64,000 nucleotides of DNA from Micractinium sp. NFX-FRZ (Eukaryota; Chlorophyta; Trebouxiophyceae; Chlorellales; Chlorellaceae): positions 124,001 through 188,000 of the forward strand of contig JAPTJF010000034.1 of NCBI GenBank assembly GCA_029339195.1, in the 5' to 3' direction. The notes beneath the pieces were generated by a model, which was not told the DNA's origin, ran no database searches, and saw only the letters and a list, made by a program, of their open reading frames with translations. A program made the position numbers and the translations under genes. Below are positions 1 through 62,217 of the stretch, piece by piece (position 1 is the first letter of the stretch; every line of letters starts with the position of its first letter).

Positions 1-3000
1 CGTCTGCGTATCCCTGGAAGTGTGCCTTGATGTACTTGCTGAAGGAGAAGCCCTTGAACCGCTCCTCCCCGGTGAGCCCCTTGAGCGCCGCGTCCGCCAC
101 AATCACGCTCTTGTCAGAAGGGTCCTGCGCTTGCGTGGACAGGACGGGGCATATGTGTGAACAGGGCGTTCATGTGAATGGGACGTGGGGGAGGGGCAGG
201 GCGACAAAGTCATGCGCGTGCATATGGGACAGGTGTCTGAAGGTGCCATGCGTGTGAATGGGAGATGAGGGAGGGCAGGGTGGCTTGGTTCCCCCACACA
301 CCACCTGCACGCCTGGGAGCAACAATCGACACACACCTGCAGCCCCCTCTCCTTGCAGTATGCCCAGAAGAACTTGGTGATCTCGGGGCGCGAGGCGGTG
401 GGCTTGCCAATCCAGGCAGCCATCTCGTCCGAAAGCCTGCATTCCACAGTTGGCTTGCGTTTGGAAGTGCAGCGCATTGCCGCAAGGCGATGCATGCAAC
501 TAACTGCACAGCGGCGTGCAGCAACGCAACATGCACTGCCCAGGCGCTCCTGCCCAAGGCGCCCGAGCACCCCGCCCGTCCGCCCCTGCCGCTGCCTCCC
601 TCCACGCCTCCACCACCATGCCCCCGCAGGCAGAAAGTGGGCAGGCAGGTGCGGTGTGTGTGCTGGGCTCACTTGCACTCCTTGGTGAACCCGTTGGGCT
701 TCCGCTCCTTCCCATCCCCCTCCCCGCTGCCTTTGCTCTTCCGCCGGCTGCCGCTGCTGCTCTTGGGGGCTGCGCCGGAGGATTGCCGCGAGCGCTTGGC
801 CGCCGGCTGCGCCTCCTCCTCATCACCGCCACCCTCCTCCTCCTCTTCTCCCTCGCTCTCGCTGCCGCCCACCACGTCTGCAAGGGGCGGCGCCGGAGGG
901 GCGGGCGGCCGGGTGGGCGGGTGAGCGTGCAGGCCAGGAGCGTGAGGTGTGCCAGTGGTGCAGCACAGAAGCCGCCTGCTGCCTTCCAGTGCTGAAGCAG
1001 CATCTCCTGCACCTGCCAACAACAGGCTCCCACCCTAACGTATGCAACGACTCCACGCAAACAAACCACCCACCGGATGTTTTGCAGTGCTTGGACAGCT
1101 GCTTCTGCATCTTGAACATGTCCGTCTTCTCCCCCGTAAACAGCTTCTTCAGCGCGTCATCTGCACGTGACACACAAAGGCTCCCACCATGAAAACAAGT
1201 GACGGAGCAAATGCTTGGCTTCTTTGCTTGCGGAGCAGCGTCTTGAGCGTCACCTGCCATGCAGCACGCCCAACACAATGCAACACGTCCAGCTCAGCAG
1301 CGTGCGCCACGCAGTTCCACACAGCCCCCCGCCACCTCAGGCACCCCGCCACCTCAGCGCCGCCTCACCAAACAGGATGACGCGCTTGTTCTTGGGGTCC
1401 TGCAGGTTGTGCTCCTTGATGTACTCCCACATGCGCTTCACCACCTGTGCAGTGACACAAGGCAGCCAAGGAAACAGACTGAAGAATGTGGGAGGCGAAT
1501 GGGGCAGGCAGCGCGGGTTGTGCCCGCTGGGTGCAGCAGCGCCCGCACGCGCTTTGCCGGCTGGGTTGGTGGGAAAGGCGTGCATGCGCGGAGCAAGACA
1601 GGGTGGTGGAGGTGACGAGCATGCATGCACAGCAAGGGAAGATGAAGGGAAGGCGAGCATCAGATGCAGAATGGCACAGAGAAGACAGGCCAGGAGGGTG
1701 GAAGTGCACGAATCTGTTGCCCCAGCCCCCCTCTGGCCTCCGCCGTCGCAGCAGACTTCCGCTCCCACTGGAGGCGCCGCTGACCCTGCTTGAATGCCCT
1801 TCCCCACACAACAGGCGCTCCACTCCCGAGCCTCTCACATGCATGCGCACACCTGCGTGAGCGGGCACCCTGCCGCGGGGGCCGCTCAGACCAGGCCCCT
1901 TGCCTGGCCTACCCCTGGGAACACCTTCGTCCTTGGGGGACCAGGCCCCGGAATCCCACAAGGCACACCACACCATACCACACCACTGCCACAATGCTCT
2001 CGCCGCACGCACCTGCGTGCGCGGCAGGCGCTCCACCCCCAGGAACTCCTGCATCTCCGGCGACAGAAACGAGCCCAGGGAGCTGCCGCTGGCCTTGCGC
2101 TTGCGCGCACTGCACGTACAATGAGGAGGGAAGGGCCGGCGGGTGGGTGGGCGGGCGGGTATGGCAGGCCGGGCAGGCGGGCGGGTGAGTGGCGCCGGTG
2201 GTGGGAGCGGTGGCCCATGCCCATGCACACTCTGCAGCAGCAGCAGTAGCAGCAGCAGCAGGTGCAGGAGCAGGAGCGCAGGAGCAACAGCACCCGACAG
2301 CAGCGTGTGGCTGCTCAAGCAGCCCGGTCATGCCCTGCCCTCCCCTCCCCTGCCCTGCCTCACCCCTTGGGCGCCTCCTCCTCGTCCTCCTCATCAATGT
2401 CCTCATCACCCTCCTCCTCCTCTGCCTCCTCCTCCACTGGCTGTGGGCAGGCAGGCAGGCAGGCGGAGGTTCGGTGAGCACCGCGCAGCACGGCGCAGCG
2501 CAGCACAGCACATGTAAGTGTGCACCACTGCTCTGCCTCCTCCACTGGCTGCACAGAGCACCCCAGGCAGGCAGGATGCAGCGCCAGCATGTGCGCGCCC
2601 TCACCCTCATGGATCTCTGCCCGCAGCAGCACCCACCAACTTGACATACTTGTGAAATGCCAGTCCCTCACCTGCGCCTCCAAGTACGCGTTGATCTCCG
2701 CCCGCAGCAGCGCCTTGCGGTCGCCCAGCCCCGCGCCAAACTCCCCCTCCAGCCGCTTCCGCAGCTGCTTCTCTGCAGGTGCGGCGGTAGTGAATCAGGG
2801 GCGTGGCGCGGCACAGTGGGTGCATGGTCTGATGAAGGGTATGGACGTGCACCACACTCCCCTCCAGCAGCTTCTGCAGCCGCATTCCTGCTGCGCTGGG
2901 AGCGAATCTGTAGTGTAGAAATTGAGAGCACGCTTCAATGACCGCATATCAGCAGTGCAAGCATGGGCATGCCTGCCACCTGCCTCTGAAGTCTGCGCGC

Positions 3001-13069: not shown

Positions 13070-13109
<40 letters not shown>

Positions 13110-14161: not shown

Positions 14162-14196
<35 letters not shown>

Positions 14197-14486
14197 ACCC
14201 ACAATTGCTGCTGCTGCTGCTGCGGCGGCTGCTGCTGGCACTGCTGGCGCTGCTGGCTGCTGCCGCAAGCGTGGCTGCCGCCGCCGCTCCTCCCTACTCA
14301 CTGCTGCGCGCTGCTGCTGCTGTAGCTCAAGCCTGGGGGGCCATGGCACGTCCTGTGTGTCGAGACATCTCGCCTCCGCCTTCCCACGCCTACCTTGCTC
14401 GCCCGGCTGCCTGTGCAGGACTCCCAACCCCGCCAGCATTAGCAACGCCAGCAATAGCAGCAGTACCTGGAGCGCAAGCATTGCCT

Positions 14487-14521
<35 letters not shown>

Positions 14522-14612: not shown

Positions 14613-14689
14613 GCTGGCTGGAGATGCCAGCCAGGCAGATGGCGCTCACGCCGAAGGCGAGCGTGCATGTACCTGTGCATTCTTGTGCC

Positions 14690-14694
14690 TGTAA
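14690..14694 (+). promoter_or_regulatory. Polyadenylation signal TGTAA (family copy 2)
   Basis: TGTAA about 80 nt after the stop codon at 14610-14612. Confidence 0.5.
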
Positions 14695-15049: not shown

Positions 15050-15054
15050 TTACA
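15050..15054 (-). promoter_or_regulatory. Polyadenylation signal TGTAA (Vma22-like gene)
   Basis: TTACA on the plus strand, about 150 nt past the stop codon of the minus-strand gene. Confidence 0.5.
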
Positions 15055-25814: not shown

Positions 25815-25819
25815 TGTAA
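25815..25819 (+). promoter_or_regulatory. Polyadenylation signal TGTAA (DEG protease)
   Basis: TGTAA about 100 nt after the stop codon. Confidence 0.55.
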
Positions 25820-28603: not shown

Positions 28604-28638
<35 letters not shown>

Positions 28639-28648
28639 TGGCTGCTGT

Positions 28649-28708
<60 letters not shown>

Positions 28709-43152: not shown

Positions 43153-46100
43153 ATGGAGGCAGAGACGGCGTTCAGCAGCGCGCAGGCGCTGCTAGAGCGC
43201 ACCAAAGTCACGGATGTGTGCAAGCCCGGCCAGAAGATTGTGCTGCTGGAGCACAACCAGACGATTGGGGAGGCGCTCAAGGCGCTGGCCAAGAATGACA
43301 TCCTCAGCGCGCCCATGGTGGGTGGGGGCTCTTCACTCTGTTTGCTACCGATTGGTTGCGCTTAATTGGGGAGGAAGGCTGGGTGCTGGTGCCATCCAGG
43401 GGCGACCCAATGGCACCAGGGGGGCAGGCGCACAGAGCGCTGGCCAAGAACGAAATCCTCAGCACGCCCATGGTGGGTGGTGGATTATGAGAGCAGCAGA
43501 GCGGGGTGGAGTTGCCTCTGGTTGTTGTTGCTGCTGCTGCTGCTGTGCATGCGGTGGTGTGTGGAGGTAAGAGAGGGCCCGGATGCAGGGGTGGGACTGT
43601 TAGAGCAGAGGCCCTTTTGAGCACCGCCAGGTGGGCGGTCTGCACCGAATGGGGTGCCAACATGGCCACAGCCCACCTGTGGCTGCCCAGCTCACCTGCG
43701 TGGCTTGCCACAGTTGCAAGTCGGGTGGGAAAGGGCGCCCCAGGGAACCCTTCCCCTGCACACGCAACCGGCAAGCCCTTGGCCCGTAAAGCTAGCATAG
43801 CAGGCAGGCCTTGTGCCACTCATCTCCTTCACTGTGCTCACCTCTTTTTCCTAGCCCCTGCTGCCAGCCTGGACTTGCCCCCAGCTCCGGTTTGACCTGT
43901 TGGAATTACCCGGGCAGGCGCCCTGCATGCGCCGCTGCCTCCTGCCCTTCCCCGCAGGCTGCCACACCGCACACTGATGGGAAGGCCGTCGCCCACACCA
44001 CTCAACCACCCACCGCACCGCCCCGCACCACCATCGCTAGCCCTGTCCCACAGCCTAGCCGCACGCAGCATCACACCGCCCCTCTGTCCCTCCCTGTCCC
44101 CACCCTTGCCCCTTCTGCCTGATTTCCAGCCAGCTGGCCACCCCTCCCCTGCCCACCATGACCGCCTGCCTGCCTGCCTGCCCAACAGCCTGACAGGTCA
44201 TGTCCTTGGCAAATCGTCTTCTGAACAGTGGCACCTGTGTGTGCGTGCAGGTCCCTGCCAGTCCAGGAATGAAGGACCTGCTGTTCCCTCACATCCCGTG
44301 CGCATCCTGACCCTGCCGTCTCGCCTCCCATCAAGCACACTGACCGGCTGGATGTCTGGCTGCTCATGTTCAGAACTGTCGAGTCAAGTTTGAACATCGC
44401 TTCCCTCCTGCCCCGAAGCTGTGCCCACAGGCCATGTCTTCAGCCGATAAATGGCCTCCCTCACCTGCTCCCCCCTCTTTCCCTCCCCCCGCAGGTCATC
44501 AATCCAGACATAGAGGAGGTGGTGGGAGGCGGGGAGATGAGCCCGCAGGTGAGCGGTTACGTGCCATGACATACGGATTGTGCGCAACCGACAGGACGGA
44601 GGAGGGAGGCAGCCGGGGGCGGGGAGATGAGCCCGCAAGCGGGCTGGGGTGGTCAGACGCTATTGTGGCAAAGCGCGCTGGGAGGCCTGCCGTGAGTTTG
44701 GATCAGGCAGCCTGGTGCCCCGTGGGTTGATGCAAGCGCCGCCTGCCTGCCCCCGCCCCTGCAGCTGCTGGGGTGGATCGACGTGGCAGATGTGCTCAGG
44801 GCTTTCCTGCAGCGTGCGTGGGCCCCTGGGGCAGCACTCCAAGGGTTCGGGGGGGTGGGCATCATGCCGTTGTTTTGTGGGTGCTGATGTCACTACCATG
44901 ACTGTTGGCTACTTCTGTCGGTGGCGCGTGGGCAGGGCTGGGGCAGGGGCGCGTGTGCATGCACTGCAAGAGGTGGGTCAGCCGTTGCGCTCGCGCTGCG
45001 CTTGTGCTGCCACCATCCGCCTGGTGTGTTTGTGTCGCCTGATGGAGGCGGCGTGTGTAAGGAGCGCCCACTGCGTGCTGCTGCTGCCTGCCCACTCACC
45101 GCACCTTGGGTGCTGCTCCTCATCCTCCTGCCTGCCTTCCAGCGGGCCTAGATATCGTGCGCACCGTGTGCCCACTCATACCGCCAACTTGCCCCGCCCC
45201 TCACACCTTCAGCCAACCCTTGTCAGAACACACTCTGCACGCCTCCCTGCTTGCAGACCTGCTTGACGCGGGGCGCATGCTGCCTACCCACGTGCCGGAC
45301 GTCAGTTGTCCTCACCCCTCTGGCCTGCCGTCCCTGCCCCCCATGTTTCCTCCTGCAGACCTGCACGACGCGGGGCACGCGCTGCCCACGCAGATGCTGG
45401 CGCTCATGAACCTGCTGGAGAAGGAGGGGCCCGGCTTCAGCGACCGGCTGCTGGTCACCATCAGGGGTGAGCTTGGGTGTGTAAAAATGGTGGTGGGCGA
45501 CACACTTGGTGTGTGTGTGTGAATGGTGGTGGGCGACACACTTGGTGTGTGTGTGTGAATGGTGGTGGGCGACCGGGGGGCTGGTGCACCAGACAGAAGC
45601 GGAGGCCACCAGCCTGGGCCTGGCACCACCCTCTTATAATGATCTGAGTCGTCTCCTGTGTTGCAATCCGTTCCCCGCAGGCGTGGAGGACCGGGGGCTG
45701 GTGTACCAGACGGAGGGGGAGGCGACCAGCCTGGAGGTCGCCATACGCAACGTCTTCCTGCGCCCCGTGGATGGGGAGACCAAGGTGGTCCACCGCCTGG
45801 CCGTGTTTGATTCGCACGGCGAGATCACAAACGTGATCAGCCAGACAGGTGAGGGGATGCATGAATGATGTTTGCATTGAGAAGGTTGGCAAGGGCAGCA
45901 GGGGGAAGGGGCAGGAGGCCGGCGGGGGGGCGTGCAAGGTAGTCAGCGAGACTGGAGGGCGGGCGGGAGCGAAGGCAGGTGAGCGAGCGGGCACGCCTGC
46001 GGTTTGCCGCCTGCTTCAGTTCTCAACCCCCTGGGCGCTACCATTTGAACATCTGCAATGAGCATCGACGGTGACCTTCCCCACGTTAAGTGTTGTCCCC

Positions 46101-48963
46101 GCCGCCCAGCACGCATGAAGAGCCGCACTTTGTTGTCCCCCTTTACATTCCCAGAACCAGGCGTTCCAAACTCCGGTAGTTGCTACCACCTTGGCATTAC
46201 CCCCTGGTTGGGGCAGACATCATTGCTGTCCGCTTCCTGCTGTCCCCGTCTGGATGAGCTCTGACTGAAGTTCCCAACCCAGCCTGCCCGTTGCACCCAC
46301 TTTCCAACCCTTACTCCCTCGAGACATCATGCTGCCAGCTGCCTGCTGCCCACTTTGGTGACCTCTTGACCAGACCGGCGGCCCACATGCCTGCTGCACC
46401 TTCTTCCCACTCCTTTGCCTCCCCCCAGACGTCATGCGCTTCCTGCTGTCCCACGTGGACGAGATGGGGCCAGTGGCGGACCAGAGCCTGGAGCAGCTGG
46501 GGCTTCTGACAGGTCAGGAGGATGGGCGGCCACCGGTGTCACACTGCGCTGCGCTGCGCTGCGCTGCGATGCGATGTGCTGTGGGGTGTTGTGCCTGAGT
46601 GACGAGTTGTGTGCCGAGTGCGGCAGTGTGCCCTGTAGTGCCCTCAGTTCTGCGTGTAATGCCTGTGAATTACCACCTGCCTCTCTCCCTCTGATTAGCC
46701 TGCCGCCCGCCCGCTCGCCCGCCTGCAGGCAAGCCCCCCGTGCTGTCCGTGAGCCCTCACGTCCCCGCCCTGCTGGCATACGCACAGCTGGCAGCGCAGC
46801 AGGTAGGAGGGCGCACAGCGCGCGCAGCAAGGCAGCTGGACAGAGTGGTGGTGCCGCAGCGTGGTTCGAGCGGCATCGTGCCGGCACGAGTGTGCGCCCC
46901 GCTGGGACAGCTGCTTCTGCTGGTGCTTGCGCACGCTCCGTCCTGCTTACCCGAGCTTCTGCTCTGCTGCGCATGGCCCGGAGCGAAAGTGCCCTGCCTC
47001 TGTGCCTCCTGCCCTCCCTGCTGCCTGCCAGGTGTCGGGTGCGCCGGTGGTGACGGACAGCGGGGAGCTGATCGCCAACCTGAGCATATCAGACATCAGG
47101 TGCGCACATCTGGCATAGCACCAGCCAGCCACACAGCGTGGCATACAGAGTCACCGCAGTAGGTCAAGGGTAGTCTGGCGCGCTGCCTCCCACGCCGGCT
47201 CGGGCCCCCACACCCTCCCCTTGCCACACCACACCTCGACTTTGCAAGGCAGGACAACAGGCTGAGCAGTTTGGCGCCCTGGCTCTCATATGCCACCTCC
47301 TGCCCCCATTCCTTCCCCCCGTTGCAGGGCCATCACTGCTGAGCAGTTTGGCGCGTTAGCGCTTCCCGTGGCCGAGTTCCTGGCGGTGGAGCACGGCACC
47401 GCCTACCTGGGGTGCGTGGGTGTAGCATTGCGGCCAGATGTTGGGGCTGTAGCATTGCAAAGGCACGCCGGACCTTCACTTGTTCCGGGGACTGCACGAT
47501 GCTCCCTCTTCTCCGCCAACAGAGCACAGTGCCGTTGACGTACCCTCGGCCCTCGAGCATCTTGCCATCGCGCGCCCGCAATTGAATGCTACGTTATTGC
47601 GCTATAATGCCACACTGCTGTACCGCCCCCTCCCCCTGCAGGTACAGTGCCACCACCAGCGCCCACGCGCGCCACCCCTTCTTCGCTTCCGCCAACCGCA
47701 GGTGGGTGGGGCGGGCTGCTATGGGACGCCCTGCTGCCCTGCTGCTCTGCTCTGGGTGCTGATAGCGGTGGGTGGGGTGCTGATAGCGGTGGGTGGTACC
47801 GCTGCTGGTCAACTGGCTGGTCGGGCAGTGCACGTGCCCGCAAGCCGCATGCACGTGCCAGGCGCTTCTCGTCCGGCGCCGCTCTCTTCTGAGGTCCCAT
47901 AACAAGCTGCAGAAGGGCCCCCGCCAAGCCAGCTGTTTCATAACAAGCAATTTCAACTCACAAGTCAAGCTGAGCGTTTTATTGCATAATTCCATGATGC
48001 AGCGGGGGTCCCACCAAGGGCGACATCCAGCTGTTCACGGTGAAGAAGGACACGACGCTGAGGGAGCTGCTGAACAAGGTGGGTGACGGCATGATTGTGG
48101 GGAATTTCACGCAACACAAATAGGAAGGGGGTGCAATTAAACAACAATCAAGGAAGCGCACGACGCTGAGGGAGCTGCTGAACAAGGTGGGATATGATTA
48201 TGAGAGGGACACGTCATGTAACATAAAGGAATGGGGAGGATGCGTGAGGAGGATGTAAATAAAAGGACATGACGCTGAGGGAGCTGCTGAACGGGGTGGG
48301 CGGAAGTGCCAAGTAGCACGCTGTACCTGCCCCTTCCCAACACGCTTCCCTGGCCTGCTCCTGTTTGTTTTCCCTTCTCCGCAGATAGTGGGAGAGCACA
48401 TCCATCGCGTGGTAAGCAAGGGCAGGGCTTTTGGCTTTTCCTGATGCTGCTGTCGCCGCTGCCACTGCGGCTGCGGCCGCCGCTGCTGCTTACTTTCTTT
48501 CAACTGCTGAGCCTGCTAATGATGCTGAGCACTCCTGCCCTATGCCTGCCTGCCTGCCTGCCTGTGCTGCAGTATGTGGTGGACAATGACGACACGCCAC
48601 GCGTGCAGGTGGGCGCCAGCTGGCACAGGGGCTGTGGCCCGGGGATCACACACAAGTCCCTTGAAAACGGGGATTGAGCGCGGCTCTAGGGGCTGGGACA
48701 ACGGGGAAGGGGCAGCGGTGGCCCACGCACGCCACCAGCAGATCACCTGACCTGCATTCGCTTTCGTACCCTCCTGCCTGCCTGCCCGCCTTGGCTGCAC
48801 GCTGCCAGCACGCACACGCTGTTGTGTTGCGCCCGCCCTCCCCGCGGCATCAAGCAGATTGTCAAGCAGTGCACCCCCTCCCCTCCTCCATGCACCCCCT
48901 TGCTTGTTGCAGGCCGTCATCACGCCCACCGATGTGCTGCGCCTGGTGGCAGGCGTCTACTGA
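43153..48963 (+). CDS. CBS-domain protein with four CBS motifs (SNF4 / PV42-like)
   Basis: Fourteen exons, 367 residues: 43153-43317, 44495-44548, 44765-44813, 45359-45466, 45681-45848, 46429-46512, 46729-46802, 47032-47099, 47328-47411, 47642-47701, 48003-48078, 48385-48411, 48573-48608 and 48913-48963. Four CBS motifs can be read. Motif 1 spans about 15-90 (LLEHNQTIGEALKALAKNDI, LLGWIDVADVLRAFL). Motif 2 ends in HGEITNVISQTDVMRFLL (about 165-190). Motif 3 is VSGAPVVTDSGELIANLSIS DIR (about 235-257). Motif 4 includes DTTLRELLNKIVGEHIHRVY and ITPTDVLRLVAG (about 320-365). Paired CBS motifs bind adenine nucleotides; the four-motif plan is that of AMPK gamma/SNF4 and plant PV42 or CBSX-type proteins. 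Which kinase or partner it serves cannot be told. Several exons are tiny (27 and 36 nt). Confidence 0.82.
43437..43480 (+). repeat. Ghost copy of CBS-gene exon 1 end
   Basis: 41 of 44 bases match 43282-43325, covering LAKNDILSAPM codons, the exon end and the GTGGGTGG donor. Offset 155 nt. Confidence 0.95.
44598..44639 (+). repeat. Ghost copy of CBS-gene exon 2 end
   Basis: Copy of about 44514-44551, keeping GGGGAGATGAGCCCGCA. Its donor has become AGC. Confidence 0.8.
45247..45294 (+). repeat. Ghost copy of CBS-gene exon 4 start
   Basis: Acceptor TGCAG plus ACCTG-TTGACGCGGGGCGC, copy of about 45350-45400, offset about 104 nt. Confidence 0.85.
45486..45573 (+). repeat. 36-bp tandem repeat in intron 4 of the CBS gene
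   Basis: About 2.5 units containing GGTGGTGGGCGACACACTTG and a (GT)n run. The last unit runs into the ghost copy of exon 5. Confidence 0.85.
45568..45623 (+). repeat. Ghost copy of CBS-gene exon 5 start
   Basis: Copy of 45686-45741 (EDRGLVYQTEGEATSL codons); the copy reads GLVHQTEAEATSL. Offset 118 nt. Confidence 0.85.
46213..46260 (+). repeat. Ghost copy 1 of CBS-gene exon 6 start
   Basis: Resembles 46427-46474 (GACGTCATG..CGCTTCCTGCTGTCCC) with a short insertion. Confidence 0.7.
46321..46365 (+). repeat. Ghost copy 2 of CBS-gene exon 6 start
   Basis: Weaker copy of the same segment (AGACATCATGC...CCTGCTGCCCAC), about 106 nt before the parent. Confidence 0.5.
47240..47290 (+). repeat. Ghost copy of CBS-gene exon 9 start
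   Basis: Shares GCTGAGCAGTTTGGCGC with exon 9 (parent 47322-47367) and has a decayed acceptor. Confidence 0.75.
48151..48191 (+). repeat. Ghost copy 1 of CBS-gene exon 11 end
   Basis: 38 of 41 bases match 48043-48083, including the AAGGTGGG donor; the last 30 are identical. Offset 108 nt. Confidence 0.95.
48261..48300 (+). repeat. Ghost copy 2 of CBS-gene exon 11 end
   Basis: Second downstream copy of the same segment, offset about 217 nt from the parent and 109 from copy 1. Confidence 0.92.
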
Positions 48964-50024: not shown

Positions 50025-53000
50025 TTACTCGGAGCGCCCGGCATAGGACTTGAAGCCCTTCTCCCGCACGTCAATGCCCACCATGGGCTCGCCCAGGTCG
50101 GCAGACACCTGCAATAGGGGCAGGGCACAAGCACGAAGCGTGTTTGAAACAGGAGCAAAGACTGACTGAACAGGAGGAAAGACTGGCAAAAAGAAGAGGC
50201 GCATTGCCCGCCAGGGCTGGCCCAGGTCAGACAACAGCCTTGCCAGGTGCTTAGCCTGGTGTTGTTTCCTGTTGTGCGGTGGAACGCACGTGTGTGAGTA
50301 TTTACGCACACGCACACAGCCCTTCACCAGCCTCCCCCATTTGTGTGCTCGACGATAACAAAGGCAAGGCTCACCTCGGCCAGCACGGCGGGGTCGTTGT
50401 AGTGGGTGACGGCCTGCACAATGGCGCGCGCGCGCTTGGCGGGGTCGCCGCTCTTGAAGATGCCGCTGCCCACAAACACGCCGTCCATGCCCAGCTGCAG
50501 CGTGGGAAGAAGGCACACAGCATGCCAAGTGGGGGTGAGAGGGGGGTTGGGGGCACAGGGGGAAGAGGCGCACACACACGCCTGTCCATGCCCAGCTGTA
50601 AGAATCACATGACATGAACAGAAGATGCGGCGTGGACGAGTGGACAGGACAGTGAGGGTGGGAGAAGGGATGGAGCCAAGGGGAGCAGCGGTTGGCGCTT
50701 TGTCAACAGACAACAAGGCGGCATGTGAACACACACACGCGGTGCGTGTCGCTTGGCCACCCACACAAACACCCGCCGCCCATTGCCCTGCACCTACCTG
50801 CATCATGAGCGCAGCGTCGGCGGGGGTGGCCACGCCGCCGGCAGCAAAGTTGACCACCGGCAGGCGGCCCAGCGCCTTGGTCTGCCGCACCAGCTCAACG
50901 GGGGCGCGCAGCTCCTGCAGGAATGCAGAAGGCAGGATGGGGGCAGGATGGGGTTGAAGAGGGGCGAAGGTAGGCTGGGACAGGATGGGTTTGCACAGCG
51001 AGTCGAGGCAGAAGGCAGGATGGGGGACAGGACCGGGTTAGATAACGGGGCAGGATGGGGGACAGGACAGGGTTAGAGAGCGGGTGAACGCGAACAGGCA
51101 GGCGGGTGGACTTGGGTGACGGCGGGCGGCACAACGGGCACGCCACACACCCTGTGCCCCCACCCTTGCAACCTGCGCAAAACTGCAGCTACAAGCTGCA
51201 ACTGATAACAACATCAGTCAACCAAAATCGTGCACAGGCTCACCTTGGCGTAGACGTACAGCTCGTCATCATCCATGGTCTGAAGCTGGCGGATGGCGCC
51301 CTGCACCGCGCGCGCGTGCCGCACTGCCTCGACCACGTTGCCGGTGCCTGCCTCGCCCTGCAGAGGTAACGGGACCACGGCGAGATGAGCGGTTGGGGGC
51401 TGAGCAGCTGGGAGACAGAGAATGCTCTTGAGAGATTGGGCAGTGAGCGTGCGAGCCCTGTCCGCCTCTCCCTAGTCGTGGCAGCACCGACCCATCACTG
51501 CTGCCTTCATAAAGCCAAACTCGACCTTGAACTCGGACTCGGCCACCAGGCCAGCACCCACCCACCTTGGTGCGGATCATGGCCGCGCCCTCTGCGATGC
51601 GCCGCAGAGCCTCGCCCAGGTCGCGGCAGCCGCAGACAAAGGGCACCTTGAAGGTGTGCTTGTTGATGTGGTGGATGTCGTCGGCGGGGGTCAGCACCTG
51701 CCGGTGGCGGCGAGGGGAGGAGAGGAGCAGGGGGACAAGAGCGGGTGGTGGGCATACAGCGCTGTACATGGCCGCCCCGCTGTGCCCGCCCTCCCCCGGC
51801 TCGACAGCAAATCATGACGTCGTACCCCACCAACTGTACACTAGCACCCGAAATATGCTTTGCCCAGCACCCACCTCGCTCTCATCGATGCAGTCGATGC
51901 CGAAATCAGCACCCAACAACCGTACGCCAGCACCCAGACAACCCAGCACCCACCTCGCTCTCGTCGATGTAGTCGATGCCGCAGGCCTCCAGGATCTGCG
52001 CCTCCACAAAGTGGCCGATGCGCGCCTTGGCCATCACGGGGATGGTCACAGCGGCCTTGATGTCCCGGATCATCTGCAGGGGCGGGCAAGAGATGGAAAA
52101 GCAAAGCAACAGGAAGCAGGCCGGTGAGTCGGGCATGGTCTGGCCTGGTAGTTGCGGGGGGCAACTGCGGGCCAGCACCAGTTGCTGGCACACACTCTGC
52201 CTCCTGCAGTGGACCTCCCCGGACCTCCTGTACTGTACTGGACCAAACCCACCTGGGGGTCGCTCATGCGGGCCACGCCGCCGTTGCGGCGGATGTCGGC
52301 GGGCACGCGCTCCAGCGCCATCACCGCCACAGCGCCCGCCTCCTCGGCGATGCGCGCCTCCTCGGGGGTCACCACATCCATGATGACGCCACCCTGCAGC
52401 GACAGGTGGTGGCGGTCAACGACACGGTCAAAGGAGCGGCGACAGGTGGGGGGCCAACAGCTGGGGCGGCACGAGGAGTAAAAGGAAATAAAAGGAAACC
52501 AGCGCGACCGGCGAGCGGGGGCAGGCGGAATGCACCCTAGTACTTGGCAGAGCCCTAGCTGCAACTTTTGCTGCTGCAAGTGCAGCCATACGATCGGCTT
52601 CTGTGCCCCCCAAGCTCACCTTGAGCATCTGGGCGAGGCCCACCTGCGGAGCGGGCAGGGAGGCAGGAAGGGGAGGGACAAGGTGGATGAGCAAGGGGCA
52701 GTCGGCAGCAGGCGGGAGCAGCAAAACAAAGTATCCAGGGTGCCGCAGGCTGCCAAACAGCCACCCGCTACAGCTGAGGCAGCTGTGCAGTGCCTAGCTG
52801 TCTCGGCTGGCAGCCGGGCTGGAACAGAAGGCCCCGCCCAGCCTAGCGGCCGTGCAAGCTGCCTGCGCCGTCGTCGCACAGTTGTTGAGATCAACACGCA
52901 AGCTGCGCTGCAACTGCCCAAGACTCCATGCTGCTCTTTGGTAAGCAGCCAGATGTAGAAGCGGCTGCCCGGCTGCAAGGACGATTGCTGTGGGTACCGC

Positions 53001-54076: not shown

Positions 54077-56619
54077 ATGGCGGGACGCATCCTGGTGGCG
54101 GTAAAAAGGGCTGCCGACTATAATGCGCGCATACGGGTCAAGCCCGACAAGGTAGGACCGCGGCGAGGTCCGCCCGACACTGCGATTGGCCCGCCCTCCG
54201 CTCACCCCTCCTTCTCTCTTGCTTGCAGAGTGGTGTTGATCTGAGCAACGTCAAGATGGCGATGAACCCTTTCTGTGAGGTGCGCTGGGGCCCATGGGAC
54301 GCCTGGCGGGTGGGAGGCGCGCGGGCAGCACGTTCACAGCGGCAAACGTCCGCCACACCCGATGCTGCTCTGCCCTCTACCCTACCCGATCGTGCAGCAG
54401 TATGTCCCTCCACAGGCTGTGTTCTGCTATGTCTGTTCTTGCTGCACGCTGGCTGTTAGACTGAGCGCAGGCTTTGCGGCCTCCCGTACACATTCGTCTC
54501 CAATTCATACGCATGCCCGGGCATGGAGCCTGAATCGGAGTTTTGCTTGGGTTGTGGTGGTCCTTTCATGTTCCCCACAGATCGCGGTGGAGGAAGCGCT
54601 GCGAGTGAAGGAGGCCAAGCTAGCGGAGGAGGTGGTGGCTGTCAGCATCGGGCCCCGCCAGGCTGCGGACACCCTGCGCACCGCTCTTGCGATGGGGGCG
54701 GACCGAGCGGTGCACGTGCAAACAGATGCAGAGGTGTGCGCTCAACCAGCGCATCTGTTTTGCAGCAGTGAGCTGTTCTTTGTTGTTTACCAGGGTGCCA
54801 GGCAGAGTGAGCAGGTGCAGGTGCAGGTGGGTGCTTTGATTCGGCAACCTGAACCACGTGATCTTTGACTGTGTTCCAAGGTACAGTGGGGCCAGGAGGG
54901 AGCGACTCGTCCCTTCCCTCCCTCCCATGATGTTAGTTCATTTTCCACATATGCATGTGCTGCAGGTGCAGCCGCTAGCTGTAGCCAAGCTGCTTGCGGC
55001 GGTGGCGCAGCGCGAGCAGGCGGGGCTGGTGCTGCTGGGGAAGCAGGCGATTGACGATGACAGCAACCAGGTAAGTTGGATCGTTGTTGTCTAGTGGGGA
55101 GTGCTCTTTGGTCCAGGGAAGGCTTGTTCAAGTCGTCTGGTCTGGTGTATGGAATGCTGAATGTGCACATGTGCCTGGTGCGGAGGTGGGGCCACCCGAT
55201 GGGCCAGGCGGGCAGTGTGGAGAAGAGGGCTGTTGGGTGTGCAGGCATGTTGGTTGAGAAACGGGGCGGGGCTCTCAAGACAGTGTTGGCAGGCAGTAGA
55301 TGCTCATCCCCAAGGAGTGGTTGGCAAGTGCCCTTGCCTGAAACCCATCTCATGTCCCACGTCATGCTCCCTCTTTGCCTTGCGCTGCTCCTCGCGCCTG
55401 CCCGCAGGCAGGGCAGATGCTGGGGCTGCCGGTCTGGCCCCAGGCCACTTTTGCCTCTTGATCTGCACTCCTCCCCCTGTCGTCCTCTGCCACCTGCAGA
55501 CGGGGCAGATGCTGGGGGCGCTGCTGGGCTGGCCCCAGGCCACTTTTGCGTCGAAACTGGAGATTGATGCGGCAGCGGGCAAGGCGACGGTCACACGGGA
55601 GGTGGATGGAGGGCTAGAGACGGTGGGTGGGTGCGGGGCCCAGCTCAGGTTCTGAAGACGATATACACAGGAACCCCGGGGCACGTGCTGGTTTCGGGGG
55701 TGCTGCTGCTGCCTGCCGGTGGTCTAGGGGTGACGCAGCCGCGTGCCTTGCCCTGCATGCGGCCTGCTGCTCCTGCTGGCTCCCGCTGCTGCTGCTTACG
55801 GCTGCTGCGATTGGCGGCTGCGGCGTCTGCAGCTGCACCCCGCGGCCCCGCCCCGCCCTGCTGTGCTGCACTGGGGGGCAAGCCTCCTTCACTGTGCGAG
55901 GTATCCGCCCCTAGCCCTGGTTGCGGGCAGTGCGGCCTGCGGCTGCATGGCACCCCTCCCTCACACTTGTTGTTCCTGCAGCTCTCCCAGCGGTCGTGGC
56001 GGAACCGGCTTATGTGCGGGCGTTGAACAGACCTCCCCCCACCTGGCGCCCCCCCCAAGGCCCCCCCAACTGGCATCACCCCCTCACCTGGCCCGCTGCC
56101 TTCATGTTTTTCCTGTGCAGCTGCGGCTGAGCCTGCCGGCAGTAGTGACAGCAGATTTGCGGCTGAACGAGCCACGCTACGCCACGCTGCCCAACATCAT
56201 GAAAGCCAAAAAGAAGCCGCTGGCCATGCTGAGCCTGGAGGTACGTGCTGTGTGTGCTGTGCTGGGCTGCGCTATACGTGCAGTGCATCCGCACACAGCG
56301 TGGGCAGTATGGGGTGCCCGCTTAGGAACTGCCCAAAATCATGTCGGTAATAACGAAGCTACCACTGTCCATGCTGAGCCTGGAGATGCTGCGCTGTGCA
56401 CGCCGCGCAGGCAGTGTTTGCCGTGTCGTGCGTGCGACACATTTCACACTGCCGTGCGTGTCTTGGCTTGCTTCCCTGCCGCAGGAGCTGGGTGTGGATG
56501 CGGCCCCGCGGCTGCAGACGCTGGGCGTGCAAGAGCCTGCCAAGCGCAAGGGGGGCGTCATCCTGTCCTCTCCAGCCGAACTGGTGGACCGCCTGCGGAA
56601 CGAGGCCAAGGTCATCTGA
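54077..56619 (+). CDS. ETFB: Electron transfer flavoprotein subunit beta
   Basis: Seven exons: 54077-54151, 54229-54279, 54581-54733, 54966-55070, 55500-55622, 56121-56240 and 56485-56619, giving 253 residues, the normal length. It has [19 protein letters not shown] at the start, [20 protein letters not shown] (the ETF beta signature), [20 protein letters not shown], and [20 protein letters not shown] with the Lys-rich recognition-loop region (KAKKKPL). With ETF alpha it carries electrons from mitochondrial acyl-CoA and amino-acid dehydrogenases to ETF:ubiquinone oxidoreductase; beta binds AMP. An in-frame Met at 54017 would add 20 residues containing Ser/Arg/His. The inner Met was chosen because it matches homologues. 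ETF alpha is not in the window. Confidence 0.96.
55401..55457 (+). repeat. Ghost copy of ETFB exon 5 start
   Basis: Copy of 55493-55552 with acceptor CGCAG, GGGCAGATGCTGGGG and CTGGCCCCAGGCCACTTTTG, and a 3-nt deletion. Confidence 0.92.
55976..56028 (+). repeat. Diverged ghost copy of ETFB exon 6 start
   Basis: Reads [15 protein letters not shown] against the parent's [20 protein letters not shown] (about 56136-56190), as if internally deleted. Confidence 0.5.
56335..56396 (+). repeat. Ghost copy of ETFB exon 6 end
   Basis: Copy of about 56194-56255 including [12 protein letters not shown] codons and the following intron bases; the GTACG donor became ATGCT. Confidence 0.88.
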
Positions 56620-57667: not shown

Positions 57668-60600
57668 TCAGCTGCCCAGCACCACAGCGCCGAGCGTGCG
57701 CCCCGCGGCCCAGGCCAGCAGCAGCAGCTTGCCTGCCTTGAGCGCGCGCAGCAGCAGGTCCTCTTCATCGTGGCGCCGCCGTGCCCGCAGGCGCACGCGG
57801 CCGCCGCCCCGGGCGGTCCGCTCCATGGCATGAAGGAAGAGGTGATGGCTGGGGTTGATGTACGGGTCAAGAGGCAGCAGCGCCCCGCTGGCGCCACGGC
57901 AGCACGTGCAGAGGAAGGCCTGCAAGCGGGCAGGGACGAGCCAGGGTAGGGTATGGGAGCAGGGAGATAGGGGGCACAGCTGTGGGGTTGCCCTCTGCAT
58001 GCACCTCACTCATGCACCCAGTTGCAACCAAACAGCCCCCACCCCACACCTCTGCCACCAATCGTTAGCCATCTGGACAGCACCGAGCTGCAGTTTCGCA
58101 GGCCCCCTGCATGCCTCTGTGCCCCCGCATGCATGCATACCTCTGAGGGTTGCCAGCTCAGCAGGCTGTCCTCCGCCGGCAGGTGCGGGAGCGCCCATGC
58201 CGGGACGGCCTTGGGCTCCCCAGCTGCCACCGACTTGCAGAGCTGGTGCAGGCTAAGCTTGGAGGGGGGAGGGGGGCCCAGCAGCAGGCGCAGGTCGCGA
58301 GTGATGCGGGAGACGAGCTCCGGAGGGAGGTGGGAGCTGCAAGGGGGATGGACAGGTGGCACAACAGATGACGAAAAATTGAGAGCAGCAGGGGTGTGGG
58401 GGTAGGACAGGTGGCAGAACAGATGACGAAGGAGTGGGAGCTTCTATGCACACCGATTATGCAGTTGAGTTTTAGCACACATGCTGACATGGCAGGATGG
58501 AGGAGGCGCAGGTCAGGAGTGATGCGGGCCATAAGCCACCCCTATGCCAACCGTATGCCACCCCAATGCGCCCTCCATGCCCCACCCCAGTGCCCCACCC
58601 GTGCCCCACCCAGTGCCTCACCCGAGTTCCGCTTCTACTGCCTCCACCAGGCCTGGTGGTGGCTGCCGGCCGCCAGCCTGGCACTGGTACTGCGCCGCCA
58701 GGTTGGCGCACAGCTGGCGGCAGGCCAGCTGCTGCAGGGAAGCTGCGGAGGTCAGGCCCCAGCCCTGCTGCTGCCGCGGCGCGTGCAGCAGCTGCGCCAG
58801 CCAGAGCGGGCGGCGCTGCTGCCCCCCCGCCTGCTGCTGCTGCTGCCGGTGATGCAGCTCCGAGAGAGCAGTGTCGCTCTGACAGCGGCGCGGCGGCTTG
58901 GCGGGCTCCTGCCGCTGCTCCCGCTGCTGCTGCCAAAGTGGTACGACTGGCAGCGGCAGCGGTACTGCTGGCCTCAGCTCTGCGGATGGGCAATGAGAAG
59001 GCACATGCTCCTGCACCGCTGGCAGGCTGGGGGCCCTGGGCAGCGAGACATGGCTGCCGATCCTGGCACCGGCAGCTGCAGGCGCTAGGCTGCCGCTGCC
59101 GCCGCTGGTGGTGCTGGTGGTGCTCAGCGCCTGCATGCTGGCCACGCGCCGCAGGACGGCCTGCGGCTGCACTGGCGTGATGGCTGTGCTGACGCAGGGA
59201 AGGTGGCCTAGCAATGACAGCGGGCTGTCCAGTAGCGTCTGCTGGCAGGGGGAAGGTGGGAATGCAGGGTTGGCGGGGGGCATGAGTGGCGCAATTCAGG
59301 CACGATGCCTCCCGCTGGCTCACTAGGCATAAGATGCACAGCCTGCGCTGCACATGGGGAGGACAGTAGCGCACATATGCAGCTCAACGGATGCTGGCCC
59401 TCCCAGCACAAACTTATGCTGTCCACCTAGCCCAGCCAGCTGCTCTGCGATCGATGCAGGATACAGCATGCTGGACCCCAGCCAGCAGTCTCAGCACACG
59501 CGGCATGATGCCACTTTCCTGGGGGTGACAGATGCAATGCAACATGCAATGCCGCTGCTGGTATGCTATGCATGCTACGCATGCTGTGCGCTGCTGTACG
59601 CTGCAAGCTTGCCTGGAGGTCGGCGGGCGTGAACAGCTCCCAGCGTGTCGGCCGGCTGGTGGCGTACACCGTCGTGAGCAAGCCATCAGGCAGTGCCGAC
59701 AGATACAGGTGCTTGCCGCCAACGCGCCGCACACTTCTAATGCTGAACCCTGCCGCCACCAGGCCCCCGCCTGATGGCTGCACAAAGCCCGGCGCCGCTG
59801 CGTCCGCCGCCGCCGCCGCTGCCGCCAGCCCCGCTGCATCTGCGCTGCTGCTGTCGGCCTCGCTGCTGGCCCCACCACTGCCACCAGCCTCCCTCGAGGC
59901 ACCACCGGTGCTGCTGTTGCTGCACTCGCTGGCACAGATGTTGGCAGTGGTGCTGCTGCCAGCAGTACCGCTGCCAGCTGGGGCTGCCAGGCTGGCCCAC
60001 CCTGGCTCCACCCAGAACAGCAGGCGCTCATCTGGATACACAATGCTGCCTCCCGGTGCCTGCAGGGAGCAGGAACGGAGCACGTATAAGAAGCTCAAAT
60101 GCAGCAAACCTTTACCGGAGCGTTTATATCTTAGTCCCCCACCCTCAAGCCAGAACACCGGTCTGTCTAGGACACCAGCCAGCACCAGCACTAAGTGCGC
60201 AGCGCCCCAGCAGCCGGGGCGGGGAGCGGCAGGGGCGCGCCCCGACACAGGCACGCATGTGCGCACGCAGGCAGAAGGCCCTCACAGAGACAGACTGCCT
60301 CCACAGCCCCATGAGCCCTGCTGGCTCTTTCTCGACTCTACAAGCTGTAAATGGCCTGGTGCCCTATCAAAACCAACTCCTCCGTTGGCTCACCTCCAGG
60401 CAGGGCGCTCCATCATCGTCAACGTACAGGCTGCACCTGCTGGCCTGGTGGGTCAAGGAGTAGACCGAATCGCCATGGTGGCTCAGCAGCCAGGCACAGC
60501 GCTCGAGGGCAGCAGGGGAGGGCGCGGGTGCTGGCGAGGGCTGCAGCACGCCGGCGGCGACGCCGCCGGGGGCGGGGTGCAGCGTGACCCCGCAGGGGCG

Positions 60601-62217
60601 TGCGCCGCCGCCCGGCTGCCGGCAGCCGAGCAGCTGGCCGTGGGCGTTGAGCAGCAGGGTGGGCGTGCGGCTGGCGAGCTCCAATGCAAACCGCGTGGGC
60701 TTGGCAGGCCCCCCGCTGCCGCCGGTGGCCAGCATGCCATGCCGCACCACCACAGGCGCAGGCGCGCAGCCAGCAGCCTCTGCCCCGCTGCCGCTGTCGT
60801 CAGCCGGGCTGGCCGGCGCGCTGCCGGCACTGCCGTAGCCTTCTGCTGCTGCCGGCAGTGGCCGTGCCTCCTCGCCTTCCGCCAGCAGCTGAAGCTCGCC
60901 TGACCCAGACAGCAGCAGCGTGAACCGCTCCCGCCCCGTGCAGCTGTGCTGCGCCTGCAGCAGCACCTGGCCGGTGAGCGGTTCATGCGACAGCAGCCGC
61001 CGGCTGTCAGCAGTCCACAGAGTGCAGGATGGCGCCGCCAGGCTGCCTGCCTGTGTGCGCAGCGGTGCCGCCTCCCCCGGTGCAAGCAGGAAGTGCTCGC
61101 TGCAGCAGGCCGCCTGCGGGGGTCCGGGGGGAAGGGTTGGGAAGATTTAGGAAAGGATCCTTGCGGCAGCTGGCATCCTGCTGGGGGCTAGAAGGCATTC
61201 CTCGGGGCAGCAGGCCAAGTGGGGGGAAAGAGAGCAGGCCCGCTACAACGAGGGGGCACGGCAGAGCACGCGGCAGATGCTGCGGCAGGCCAGGGTGCAG
61301 CGGACACAAGCTGCAGCCACGCGCACAAGCAAAACCCTGCACTCGCAATCATGCATCCCCCACTCGCCTCACCGGCGAAGTTGCCGACAGCGCCCCGCTG
61401 CTGCTACCAGACAGGTACCCCCCACCTCCTGCGCCGCCGCTGGCGCTGCCCTGCTGGCAGCGCAGGGCAGCCCGCAGCGGCCAGGCCCACAGGCTGTGCC
61501 GAGGCAGGCCTGCCTCCAGCAAAGCAAACAGCTTGGAGGGCCGGTCCCTGCCCAGCGGCATCCGCCCCGCTAGCGCAGCGCCACCTGGCGAGGCCTGCAG
61601 GCACGCGCTGCCTGCCAGGCGCAGCACCACGCCTGCGAGTCAGGGGCACAGGCAGCAGAGGGATCAGGGCAGGGCATTCGTATGGGAGAAGCAGGATGCC
61701 CGACTTGTGTTCATGCCATGCCCAGCAGCATTGGGGTCAGCATAACTCATCCCAGTGGCAGGACAAGGTTGCCTGGTTAGCGTGCATGCCATGCCACAGC
61801 ACACGGGCCGGCATGCTGTGCTAGCGGCGCTGCCAGCATTTTGGCAACAGCACCGGTGGCAGGCTGGGCGGCAGGCGGCTCACGTCTGTCCATGTCCATG
61901 AAGAGCTGCAGAGTTTGAGGCGCGTTGTCGCAATTGAGCTGCGCGCCATGGGCAGAGAGGTAGCCGCCAGTGGCCCCCGAGCGCAAATAGTACCGGCAGG
62001 TGTCGCTCGTGGCGCTTCCCGCCTGGCTGGCAGCGGGAGGGCCCACGCCCGCCGCGGCTGCTGCCAGCACCCACAGGCACGCCTGGTCGTCAGACGTGGC
62101 GCTGGGGCTCACAAATCGCAGCGCCTGGCCGGGCCAGGCCACTAGCAGGCGGCCTTTGAAGTCGCTAAGCTGCACCAGCGCCCCGCACTGCCCTAGCGGG
62201 CCGAGGGTACTCTCCAT
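57668..62217 (-). CDS. Large uncharacterised protein with weak beta-trefoil-like repeats
   Basis: Not recognised. Seven exons: 61884-62217, 61373-61632, 60394-61113, 59613-60059, 58622-59241, 58141-58336 and 57668-57919, giving 942 residues. The N-terminal half repeats short patterns such as YYLRSGATGGYLSAHGAQL, TPTLLLNAHGQLLGC and SLYVDDDGAPCLEV, which recall the 'exposed-surface plus reporter Gly' style of fascin/actin-crosslinking beta-trefoil repeats; this is only a resemblance. The middle (about 640-790) is Gln/Ser/Pro-rich. The C-terminus has a helical block (HLPPELVSRITRDLRLLLG, KLSLHQLCKSVAAGEPK) and AFLCTCCRGASGALLPLDPY, then ends in ALKAGKLLLLAWAAGRTLGA. Intron 4 has a GC donor at 59612. 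The Met at 62217 was chosen; the frame is open further upstream to 62367. Confidence 0.62.
58503..58535 (-). repeat. Ghost copy of exon 6 segment of the 942-residue protein gene
   Basis: Copy of about 58285-58318 (RITRDLRLL codons); the copy reads RITPDLRLL. The nearby intron sequence ACAGATGACGAA is also duplicated (58360s and 58420s). Confidence 0.75.

What the first reader, a model, noticed from the sequence alone, without database searches (positions are those of the whole stretch)
1..62217. Pervasive 'ghost exons': decayed same-strand copies of exon ends in neighbouring introns
In eight of fourteen genes I find about 39 intronic segments of 20-90 nt that repeat the start or end of an adjacent exon together with its splice site. 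All are in direct orientation, next to their parent and usually 80-250 nt away. The range runs from nearly identical (MTHFR exon 5, 44/45) to barely recognisable, which suggests a continuing process rather than one event. No feature type in ordinary annotation names this. It fits repeated short tandem duplication across splice junctions, a proposed route of intron gain or lengthening. The six other genes (the three unknown-family copies, the Vma22-like gene, the FYV7-like gene and the last gene) show no clear case, so the load is uneven.
Basis: partly seen in the sequence, partly recalled or inferred. Interest (0 to 1): 0.88.

Follow-up and report, generated by a model that had tools for sequence, protein, structure and literature searches.

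The report
Exon-end copies inside algal introns
In this green alga about one tested exon end in ten has a partial copy of itself lying about 100 letters away inside the neighbouring intron; the copies are real, but most do not look like ordinary stuttered duplications that are simply rotting away.

Summary
Local repeats 45-400 nt apart are almost all same-strand: window 45 direct vs 3 inverted, 21 other 10-kb loci 120 vs 4. With other genes' exon ends as the null, 59 of 568 exon ends outside the window match their own adjacent intron at p<=0.01 (about 6 expected; reverse complements 4); in the window 34 of 175 do. Intron segments do so in about 31 of 472 and intergenic ones in 5 of 139. The copies look unconstrained.

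A tandem duplication across a splice junction must copy intron and exon together, but the match ends near the splice site (median 5 nt into the intron; over 13 nt in 4 of 56 pairs, against 62-83% in neutral simulations). Fits need the flank to diverge at least six times faster than the copy, or to be unrelated; ordinary tandem duplications are about 7%. Yet the flank keeps intron-end composition, and in ten multi-copy arrays inner spacers match better than outer flanks. I favour old junction-spanning duplications whose exon part is kept similar by exchange with the constrained exon. Exon-bounded copying is the main rival.

The parts
38326..38379 (+). Copy of an MTHFR exon start (parent 38444-38497, offset 118)
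   Evidence: 52/54 overall, 44/45 exon positions; flanking intron shows no homology
38672..38736 (+). Copy of an MTHFR exon end (parent 38514-38578, offset 158)
   Evidence: 53/65; splice site lost in the copy
38924..38945 (+). Copy of an MTHFR exon end (parent 38857-38878, offset 67)
   Evidence: 19/22
39397..39434 (+). Copy of an MTHFR exon start (parent 39561-39598, offset 164)
   Evidence: 28/38, weak
48153..48191 (+). First copy of a CBS/SNF4 exon end (parent 48045-48083, offset 108)
   Evidence: 37/39; spacer homology p=0.010 global, 0.003 local
48263..48300 (+). Second copy in the same array (offset 217)
   Evidence: 35/38
43422..43483 (+). Copy of a CBS/SNF4 exon end (parent 43267-43328, offset 155)
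   Evidence: 54/62; the 15-residue peptide it adds to the predicted protein is absent from the 8 related proteins aligned
44605..44637 (+). Copy of a CBS/SNF4 exon end (parent 44515-44547, offset 90)
   Evidence: 28/33
45252..45298 (+). Copy of a CBS/SNF4 exon start (parent 45354-45400, offset 102)
   Evidence: 37/47
45576..45617 (+). Copy of a CBS/SNF4 exon start (parent 45693-45734, offset 117)
   Evidence: 37/42
46231..46246 (+). Short copy near a CBS/SNF4 exon start (parent 46437-46452, offset 206)
   Evidence: 16/16
47261..47277 (+). Short copy near a CBS/SNF4 exon start (parent 47338-47354, offset 77)
   Evidence: 17/17
20040..20062 (+). Copy of a Deg exon start (parent 20144-20166, offset 104)
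   Evidence: 23/23; no flank homology detected
22013..22057 (+). Copy of a Deg exon end (parent 21895-21939, offset 118)
   Evidence: 40/45; no flank homology detected
22894..22966 (+). Copy of a Deg exon start (parent 22988-23060, offset 94)
   Evidence: 31/35 and 23/28; intron part also similar, an ordinary tandem duplication
23300..23344 (+). Tandem duplication reaching a Deg exon start (second copy 23399-23443, offset 99)
   Evidence: 39/45, intron part conserved
23684..23711 (+). Copy of a Deg exon start (parent 23811-23838, offset 127)
   Evidence: 25/28
24247..24285 (+). Copy of a Deg exon start (parent 24368-24406, offset 121)
   Evidence: 34/39
24596..24626 (+). Copy of a Deg exon end (parent 24447-24477, offset 149)
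   Evidence: 25/31
25228..25250 (+). Outer copy of a Deg exon start (parent from 25499, offset 266)
   Evidence: 15/16 to the exon, 20/23 to the inner copy
25371..25447 (+). Inner copy of the same Deg exon start (parent 25499-25575, offset 128)
   Evidence: 65/77
34397..34439 (-). Copy of a cis-prenyltransferase exon start (parent 34284-34326, offset 113)
   Evidence: 37/43
2859..2891 (-). Copy of a SWIB-gene exon start (parent 2744-2776, offset 115)
   Evidence: 27/33
2612..2633 (-). Copy of SWIB-gene exon sequence (parent 2693-2714, offset 81)
   Evidence: 20/22
50584..50598 (-). Short copy of a PDX1 exon start (parent 50483-50497, offset 101)
   Evidence: 15/15
51874..51902 (-). Copy of a PDX1 exon end (parent 51953-51981, offset 79)
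   Evidence: 27/29; spacer also homologous
55401..55457 (+). Copy of an ETF-beta exon start (parent 55493-55552, offsets 92/95)
   Evidence: 22/25 and 32/36, split by a 3-nt indel
56362..56385 (+). Copy of an ETF-beta exon end (parent 56217-56240, offset 145)
   Evidence: 22/24, with more diverged homology beyond it
58501..58528 (-). Copy of exon sequence of the last gene (parent 58283-58310, offset 218)
   Evidence: 25/28
61184..61226 (-). Weak copy of an exon start of the last gene (parent 61079-61121, offset 105)
   Evidence: 31/43
30593..30622 (-). Copy of exon-interior sequence of an unknown-family gene (parent 30377-30406, offset 216)
   Evidence: 25/30

Best explanation
Exon-tethered arrays. 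(1) Short same-strand tandem duplications arise in this genome, in introns and across splice junctions [shown: excess of direct over inverted repeats; a minority of pairs with the intron part still homologous]. (2) If the unit spans a junction, the copy that joins the rest of the exon stays functional and the other becomes a hidden intronic copy that is not constrained as protein or as splice site [shown by the spread of differences over codon positions and the loss of splice dinucleotides]. (3) The intron part drifts in both copies and is lost, while the exon part of the hidden copy is repeatedly refreshed by exchange with the constrained exon (replication slippage, unequal exchange or short conversion). 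This leaves similarity only over the exon and the splice-site core and produces arrays exon-(spacer-copy)n [inferred]. The result is longer introns seeded with exon look-alikes.
For: Direct repeats far exceed inverted ones in the window and in 21 outside loci. 59 of 568 exon ends outside the window and 34 of 175 inside match their own adjacent intron. Flanks of the copies keep the composition of real intron ends: pyrimidine 0.722/0.655/0.600 against 0.557/0.538/0.523 for controls at the same distance (41 acceptor-type), G 0.419/0.381 vs 0.312/0.297 (28 donor-type), as expected if the intron end was once copied too. Residual flank homology is weak but real: mean z 0.99 (52 pairs) vs about 0.2 in 300 control comparisons, p=1e-4. 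In the L005 pair at 6186 the spacers are clearly homologous (no shuffle of 300 reached the score) although the exon part is 65/68; over 16 hand-picked pairs 6 have spacer homology at global p<=0.01. In 10 hand-picked arrays of three or four copies, inner spacers have mean z 2.67 (8 of 11 at 2.0 or more) and outer flanks 0.68 (8 of 10 at 0.5 or less, two at 3.0); p=0.005, the edge effect of unequal exchange. Spacings in several arrays are near-equal (108/109, 93/94, 113/115, 84/88). Differences between copy and exon fall on all codon positions (0.122/0.151/0.177; 140 replacement, 68 synonymous, 2 stop codons; 50 pairs). The copy's AG is intact in 33 of 41 and its GT in 13 of 28, where exon positions are 0.855 and 0.815 identical. 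With the least flank homology, exon identity exceeds neutral simulation (0.857, 39 pairs, vs 0.808; p=0.0006). The fit needs the flank to change at least 6 times faster than the copy.
Against: No exchange event is seen directly. Where the spacer is still partly homologous, the exon part is not more conserved than neutral simulation predicts (0.850 vs 0.839 in 10 pairs, 0.829 vs 0.870 in 3). The likelihood does not separate a fast-decaying flank from an unrelated one (both -63.9). Patchy identity within copies is weak: 8 of 24 vs 12% in simulation for intermediate identity beyond the match, uncorrected, while mean identity there is the same as in simulation (0.462 vs 0.469). Exchange over 20-70 nt is short for recombination. 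Arrays in introns alone should also be homogenised, yet they are detected less often than exon ones. Three of 11 inner spacer pairs show little similarity (z 0.4, 0.5, 1.2).
Confidence: 0.4

Rival explanations
1. Exon-bounded copying: a process copies just the exon end plus the splice-site core into the neighbouring intron, without the rest of the intron, for instance template switching guided by splice-site-like motifs.
For: Matches end close to the junction (median 5 nt into the intron, 90% within 11.5 nt) even in pairs with 94-98% exon identity. Best likelihood is a mixture with 93% unrelated flanks (-60.2, one parameter more). Three of three spacers queried have no other match in the assembly.
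Against: The outer flank has intron-end composition out to about 57 nt, which a random landing site would lack. Near-equal spacing in several arrays. Some spacers and flanks are clearly homologous. I know of no mechanism that stops at splice sites. In 35 of 100 pairs involving an exon the match lies more than 6 nt from the junction, some of them because of an indel.
Confidence: 0.3
2. Ordinary neutral tandem duplications across splice junctions that simply decay.
For: Some pairs fit: window offsets 94, 99 and 79, L009, L024 and the L026 donor array. Intron segments also show an excess, about 31 of 472. A junction-spanning case is published for potato (PMC4974935, abstract and results section read).
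Against: Neutral simulations fail by a wide margin (log-likelihood -137.7 vs about -60).
Confidence: 0.1
3. The copies are functional (splicing decoys, poison exons, enhancers) and conserved by selection.
For: Copies are better preserved than their flanks, AG is intact in 33 of 41 acceptor-type copies, and the gene finder called several copies as exons.
Against: GT is intact in only 13 of 28 donor-type copies. Differences are spread over codon positions. Of 18 amino-acid-changing differences inside the matched stretches of 8 CBS-gene copies, the relatives aligned carry the exon's residue in 16, so the copy is the drifting one.
Confidence: 0.07
4. Intron ends are intrinsically hypermutable (slippage in pyrimidine- or G-rich tracts), so flanks scramble quickly while complex exon-derived copies do not.
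For: Spacer alignments are rich in gaps while exon parts show 0.136 gaps per substitution. Composition is kept although sequence is lost.
Against: Near-equal spacing in several arrays means little net length change. Simulations with 0.6 indels per substitution still give a mean z above 5.
Confidence: 0.1

Closest known systems
Tandem duplication crossing an intron-exon boundary in the potato RdRp gene (PMC4974935; abstract and results section read)
   Same: Same-strand duplication of an intron end plus the adjoining exon start, with extra splice sites.
   Different: There the intron part is copied with the exon part and a new intron results; here the intron part is mostly not similar, no new splicing is shown, and there are many loci.
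[quoted passage not shown]
   Same: Exon sequence ends up inside an intron.
   Different: There the intron is the duplicate itself; here copies lie inside longer introns.
[quoted passage not shown]
   Same: Partial exon duplication hidden by splicing.
   Different: Few cases (5 of 31 in the passages seen), and they create novel intron positions.
Minisatellite-like tandem arrays under concerted evolution (general knowledge)
   Same: Near-equal spacing in several arrays, inner spacers alike, edge units divergent.
   Different: Here one repeat copy is coding exon and mainly that part of the unit stays alike.

Membership tests
Junction-spanning tandem genomic duplication | Exon and adjoining intron parts copied as one contiguous unit | tested here: not met
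   Met in a minority only: matches run more than 13 nt into the intron in 4 of 56 pairs vs 62-83% in simulation; about 7% in a two-class fit; 6 of 16 hand-picked pairs have spacer homology
Junction-spanning tandem genomic duplication | Same strand, adjacent | tested here: met
   165 direct vs 7 inverted, window plus 21 loci at score 14
Rogers-type intron gain | Offset equals intron length, intron made of the duplicate | tested here: not met
   Median offset 114 nt; introns with copies have median 304 nt, with a median of 181 nt of intron beyond the copy (values distorted, some negative, where a copy was called an exon)
Introner-type or other mobile element | Inserted sequence present in many genomic copies | tested here: not met
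   3 of 3 spacers queried match only themselves in the 66-Mb assembly; the search skips simple repeats and very common words
Tandem exon duplication with alternative exons | Whole exon copied and spliced into some transcripts | not testable with these tools
   Copies are partial; the one copy peptide aligned is missing from the 8 relatives chosen of 57 listed; no RNA data
Concerted evolution of tandem arrays | Inner units alike, edge units divergent | tested here: met
   Internal mean z 2.67 (n=11) vs edge 0.68 (n=10), p=0.005, in 10 hand-picked arrays; two edges at 3.0 are exceptions
Concerted evolution of tandem arrays | Direct evidence of sequence exchange (mosaics, shared new variants) | tested here: inconclusive
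   8 of 24 vs 12% in simulation for intermediate identity beyond the match, but equal means, 0.462 vs 0.469

The most novel reading that the evidence does not exclude
Splice-bounded exon ends act as master copies: a genome-wide, exon-directed process creates or keeps refreshed partial exon copies in adjacent introns, forming exon-(spacer-copy)n arrays at roughly one exon end in ten. Introns would be partly built from their own exons, with similarity set by exon constraint rather than by age.
Probability: 0.35. Interest if true: 0.85.

Novelty: new variant of a known kind. Interest (0 to 1): 0.62.

Why it matters
If exon ends keep seeding or refreshing copies of themselves in neighbouring introns, intron lengthening has a local, exon-driven source that can be studied copy by copy, and divergence between exon and copy could not be read simply as age. 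The copies look so much like exons that a gene finder called several of them as exons here, so they are a hazard for gene annotation in this lineage. The case also makes a sharp test possible: close relatives would show whether copy and flank are equally old.

Tried and rejected
Rejected: neutral whole-unit tandem duplication as the general account. Rogers-type intron gain. Mobile or captured spacer DNA (three spacers against the assembly; ten spacer/flank pairs against the fetched loci gave only themselves, array copies or short matches, up to 5 rows per query shown). Unequal crossing between divergent haplotypes: it would put differences mainly on third codon positions. Protein-level or splice-site selection on copies. 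Copying from spliced RNA: copies carry intronic splice-site bases.

Led nowhere or weak: the first gene-finder settings drifted to tiny exons, replaced. Acyl-CoA-synthetase-like paralogs (identity inferred from the predicted peptides, not from a family search; L005, L024, L025, L026) carry copies at the same exon start in the 3 of 4 genes predicted to have that intron, which by my own rough estimate (no call) is not beyond chance. A claim I first drew, that intergenic and intron-only repeats are nearly absent, was softened by the gapped test. The longest-run test for clustering of differences was marginal (p=0.035). No relative was found in viral contigs (one scan). No outgroup algal DNA was found here. 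No paper describing this was found in 10 searches; the 2010 Chlorella variabilis genome paper is not held, so whether it mentions this is unknown.

Dropped before counts: locus L013 in most tests (45 pairs at score 16; it was still in the profile, so one search replaces that profile's splice-site figures), TRF-masked short-period repeats, offsets under 45 nt in most tests, two of the eight arrays listed (a coding repeat and the L017 array) were left out and four others added by hand. In one search the L026 case was given a wrong register for its exon part (printed 43/54; the match itself is 53/54). One search counted positions outside the matched stretches; one search gives the corrected count.
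Full report
WHAT THE WINDOW IS. The window is 64 kb of a 66-Mb, 838-contig assembly (G000:C34:124001-188000), 62-69% GC by 4-kb steps. Its ETF-beta protein is 87% identical to Micractinium tetrahymenae and 83% to Chlorella variabilis; its CBS protein is 84% and 83% identical to two named Micractinium species, with one unnamed sequence at 91%. So it is a Micractinium/Chlorella-type green alga. I trained a small splice-aware gene finder on 284 kb of this genome. It recovers a SWIB protein, a Deg protease, a cis-prenyltransferase, MTHFR (in two pieces), an rRNA-processing protein, a CBS protein, PDX1 and ETF-beta; all nine proteins submitted have the expected Pfam domain. Models are predictions. 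The finder sometimes called the intronic copies exons.

Exact words of 16 nt repeated within 20-600 nt occur in 34 direct and 0 inverted places in the window. With approximate matching and masking of short-period repeats, direct against inverted is 45:3 in the window and 120:4 in 21 other 10-kb loci (score 14, offset at least 45). L013, which alone gives 45 pairs at score 16, was left out. Reading the 50 window pieces by hand I count 31 intronic copies of exon sequence in nine genes. Copies of exon starts lie upstream and copies of exon ends downstream. The median offset over 69 anchored pairs from the window, other loci and paralog loci is 114 nt.

A CALIBRATED RATE. For each exon end I scored its best gapped local match in its own adjacent intron against 99 exon ends of other loci in the same intron. 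By set, p<=0.01 is reached by 34 of 175 exon ends in the window, 59 of 568 in L002-L023 without L013, and 10 of 48 in the paralog loci; the reverse complements reach it in 0, 4 and 0. About 1% is expected. An earlier run over all 791 gave 11.4% of 395 exon ends and 12.9% of 396 exon starts, exon starts against the intron on the far side 2.4% of 170, intron segments against the rest of their intron 7.4% of 231 and 5.8% of 241 (their reverse complements 1.3% and 2.5%), and intergenic segments 3.6% of 139. So local same-strand duplication is general, but exon ends stand out about twofold over introns at this sensitivity. At high stringency the contrast is larger: 69 exon-intron, 27 intron-intron and 2 intergenic pairs at score 16 without L013 (some of the intron-intron ones are copy-copy pairs). 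The paralog loci were chosen because they are related to a gene with copies, and the window is where the effect was first noticed, so the L002-L023 rate (10%) is the fairest.

THE COPIES LOOK UNCONSTRAINED. Differences between copy and exon are 0.122, 0.151 and 0.177 at codon positions 1 to 3, with 140 replacement, 68 synonymous and 2 stop codons (50 pairs). Inside the matched stretches of eight CBS-gene copies (85 codons), of 18 amino-acid-changing differences the related proteins carry the exon's residue in 16, the copy's in 1 and neither in 1, beside 7 synonymous ones. The copy is therefore the derived one. The splice dinucleotide of the copy is intact in 33 of 41 acceptor-type and 13 of 28 donor-type copies, where the first 15 exon positions are 0.855 and 0.815 identical. 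A copy-derived 15-residue peptide predicted in the CBS protein is absent in the 8 relatives aligned, chosen from 57 listed.

WHY SIMPLE TANDEM DUPLICATION FAILS. A duplication that spans a junction must carry an intron part S with the exon part E, giving S-E-S-E; with only the exon constrained, S should diverge about twice as fast as the copy of E. I compared the two S parts by gapped alignment against mismatched S parts. Observed mean z is 0.99 over 52 pairs, with 65% below 1.5. Neutral simulations through the same detection give mean z 5.1 to 6.8 and 10-20% below 1.5 over six settings. The ungapped match extends a median of 5 nt into the intron and more than 13 nt in 4 of 56 observed pairs, against 62-83% in simulations, depending on exon identity. 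Over 16 hand-picked pairs, 6 have spacer homology at global p<=0.01 and 10 do not; those without include MTHFR (exon part 44/45), a Deg pair (19/19), L005 (37/39) and L017 (30/32). Fitting a rate ratio, the log-likelihood is -137.7 for equal rates, -69.5 at 4, -63.9 at 6 and 8, -64.3 at 12, and -63.9 for unrelated flanks; a mixture of 7% ordinary duplications and 93% unrelated flanks reaches -60.2.

WHAT THE FLANKS STILL TELL. The flanks are not random intron. Upstream of acceptor-type copies the pyrimidine content is 0.722, 0.655 and 0.600 in three 15-nt windows, close to real intron ends, while control positions at the same distance give 0.557, 0.538 and 0.523 (41 copies; p from 1e-9 to 0.002). 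Downstream of donor-type copies G is 0.419 and 0.381 against 0.312 and 0.297 (28 copies; p 0.0008 and 0.005). Control introns without copies give a z of about 0.2 (300 comparisons), so the observed 0.99 is a real though weak residue of homology (p=1e-4). In one L005 pair the exon part is 65/68 and the long spacers are plainly homologous (global score 29.6 against 9.0 +/- 3.7 for shuffles). In ten hand-picked arrays of three or four copies, neighbouring inner spacers have mean z 2.67 (8 of 11 at 2.0 or more) and outer flanks 0.68 (8 of 10 at 0.5 or less, two at 3.0; p=0.005). Spacings are nearly equal in several arrays (108/109, 93/94, 113/115, 84/88) and not in others (104/126, 137/149, 118/214). 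Three of three spacers queried match only themselves in the assembly.

INTERPRETATION. One reading joins these facts: old junction-spanning duplications, in which the intron part has drifted to near-unrecognisability while the exon part of the hidden copy is repeatedly made similar again by exchange with the exon, whose own sequence is held by selection. It explains why similarity ends near where selective constraint ends (the splice-site core), why flanks keep composition but not sequence, and why arrays tend to show similar inner spacers and dissimilar edges. The exchange step is inferred. Against it: pairs with partly homologous spacers show no excess exon identity over simulation (0.850 vs 0.839), evidence for patchy identity is weak and the means are equal, and the likelihood cannot separate fast decay from unrelated flanks. 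The strongest rival is exon-bounded copying into the intron by an unknown process.

RELATION TO KNOWN WORK. Tandem duplication as a route of intron gain is well established (PMC3443670 and PMC2891723, passages read), and a duplication crossing an intron-exon boundary is described in potato, with the intron part copied (PMC4974935, abstract and results section read). In the Auxenochlorella preprint (PMC12633428, passages read) heterozygosity at four-fold sites is 3.44% and in introns 4.02%, which supports treating intron and silent sites as similarly fast in this group. The Coccomyxa genome paper (PMC3446292) mentions nothing of this kind in the four passages seen. Ten searches of the held library found no description of splice-bounded exon-end copies as a genome-wide feature (listings only); most subscription papers are not held.

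VERDICT. I rate it a new variant of a known kind, of fairly high interest, with a clear outgroup test that could not be run here.

Noticed in passing
window 20040-20062, 38326-38379, 43422-43483: Copies are so exon-like that an ab initio gene finder includes several as exons, which splits or pads genes such as MTHFR, Deg and CBS.
   Followed up: partly
L024:2700-3000, L026:2940-3190, L005:6170-6420: In acyl-CoA-synthetase-like paralogs the same exon start (FELPK / FEMV) carries copies in all three of four genes predicted to have that intron, including a four-copy array in L024; by rough estimate not beyond chance.
   Followed up: partly
L026:1035-1088: Exon-start copy with 53/54 identity at offset 121; a paralog (L005:4242-4277) has a copy at the equivalent exon start, also at offset 121.
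   Followed up: partly
window 43422-43483: In the CBS gene the copy keeps Glu at residue 49 as several relatives do, while the exon has Asp: a copy preserving an older exon state.
   Followed up: yes
window 45474-45573: A 36-nt unit repeated nearly three times in a CBS intron directly beside an exon-start copy.
   Followed up: no
window 4805-14547 and 26090-32018: Long predicted proteins of unknown family sharing a YKLGKKRWSYN motif and large glutamine-rich stretches; two such regions lie in one predicted gene.
   Followed up: no
L013: A 10-kb locus with unusually many local direct repeats (37 pieces at score 21; 45 pairs at score 16); not examined further.
   Followed up: no
window and fetched loci, predicted introns: The trained 3' splice site consensus is strongly TGCAG, often CTGCAG in the examples seen, which is a palindrome.
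   Followed up: no
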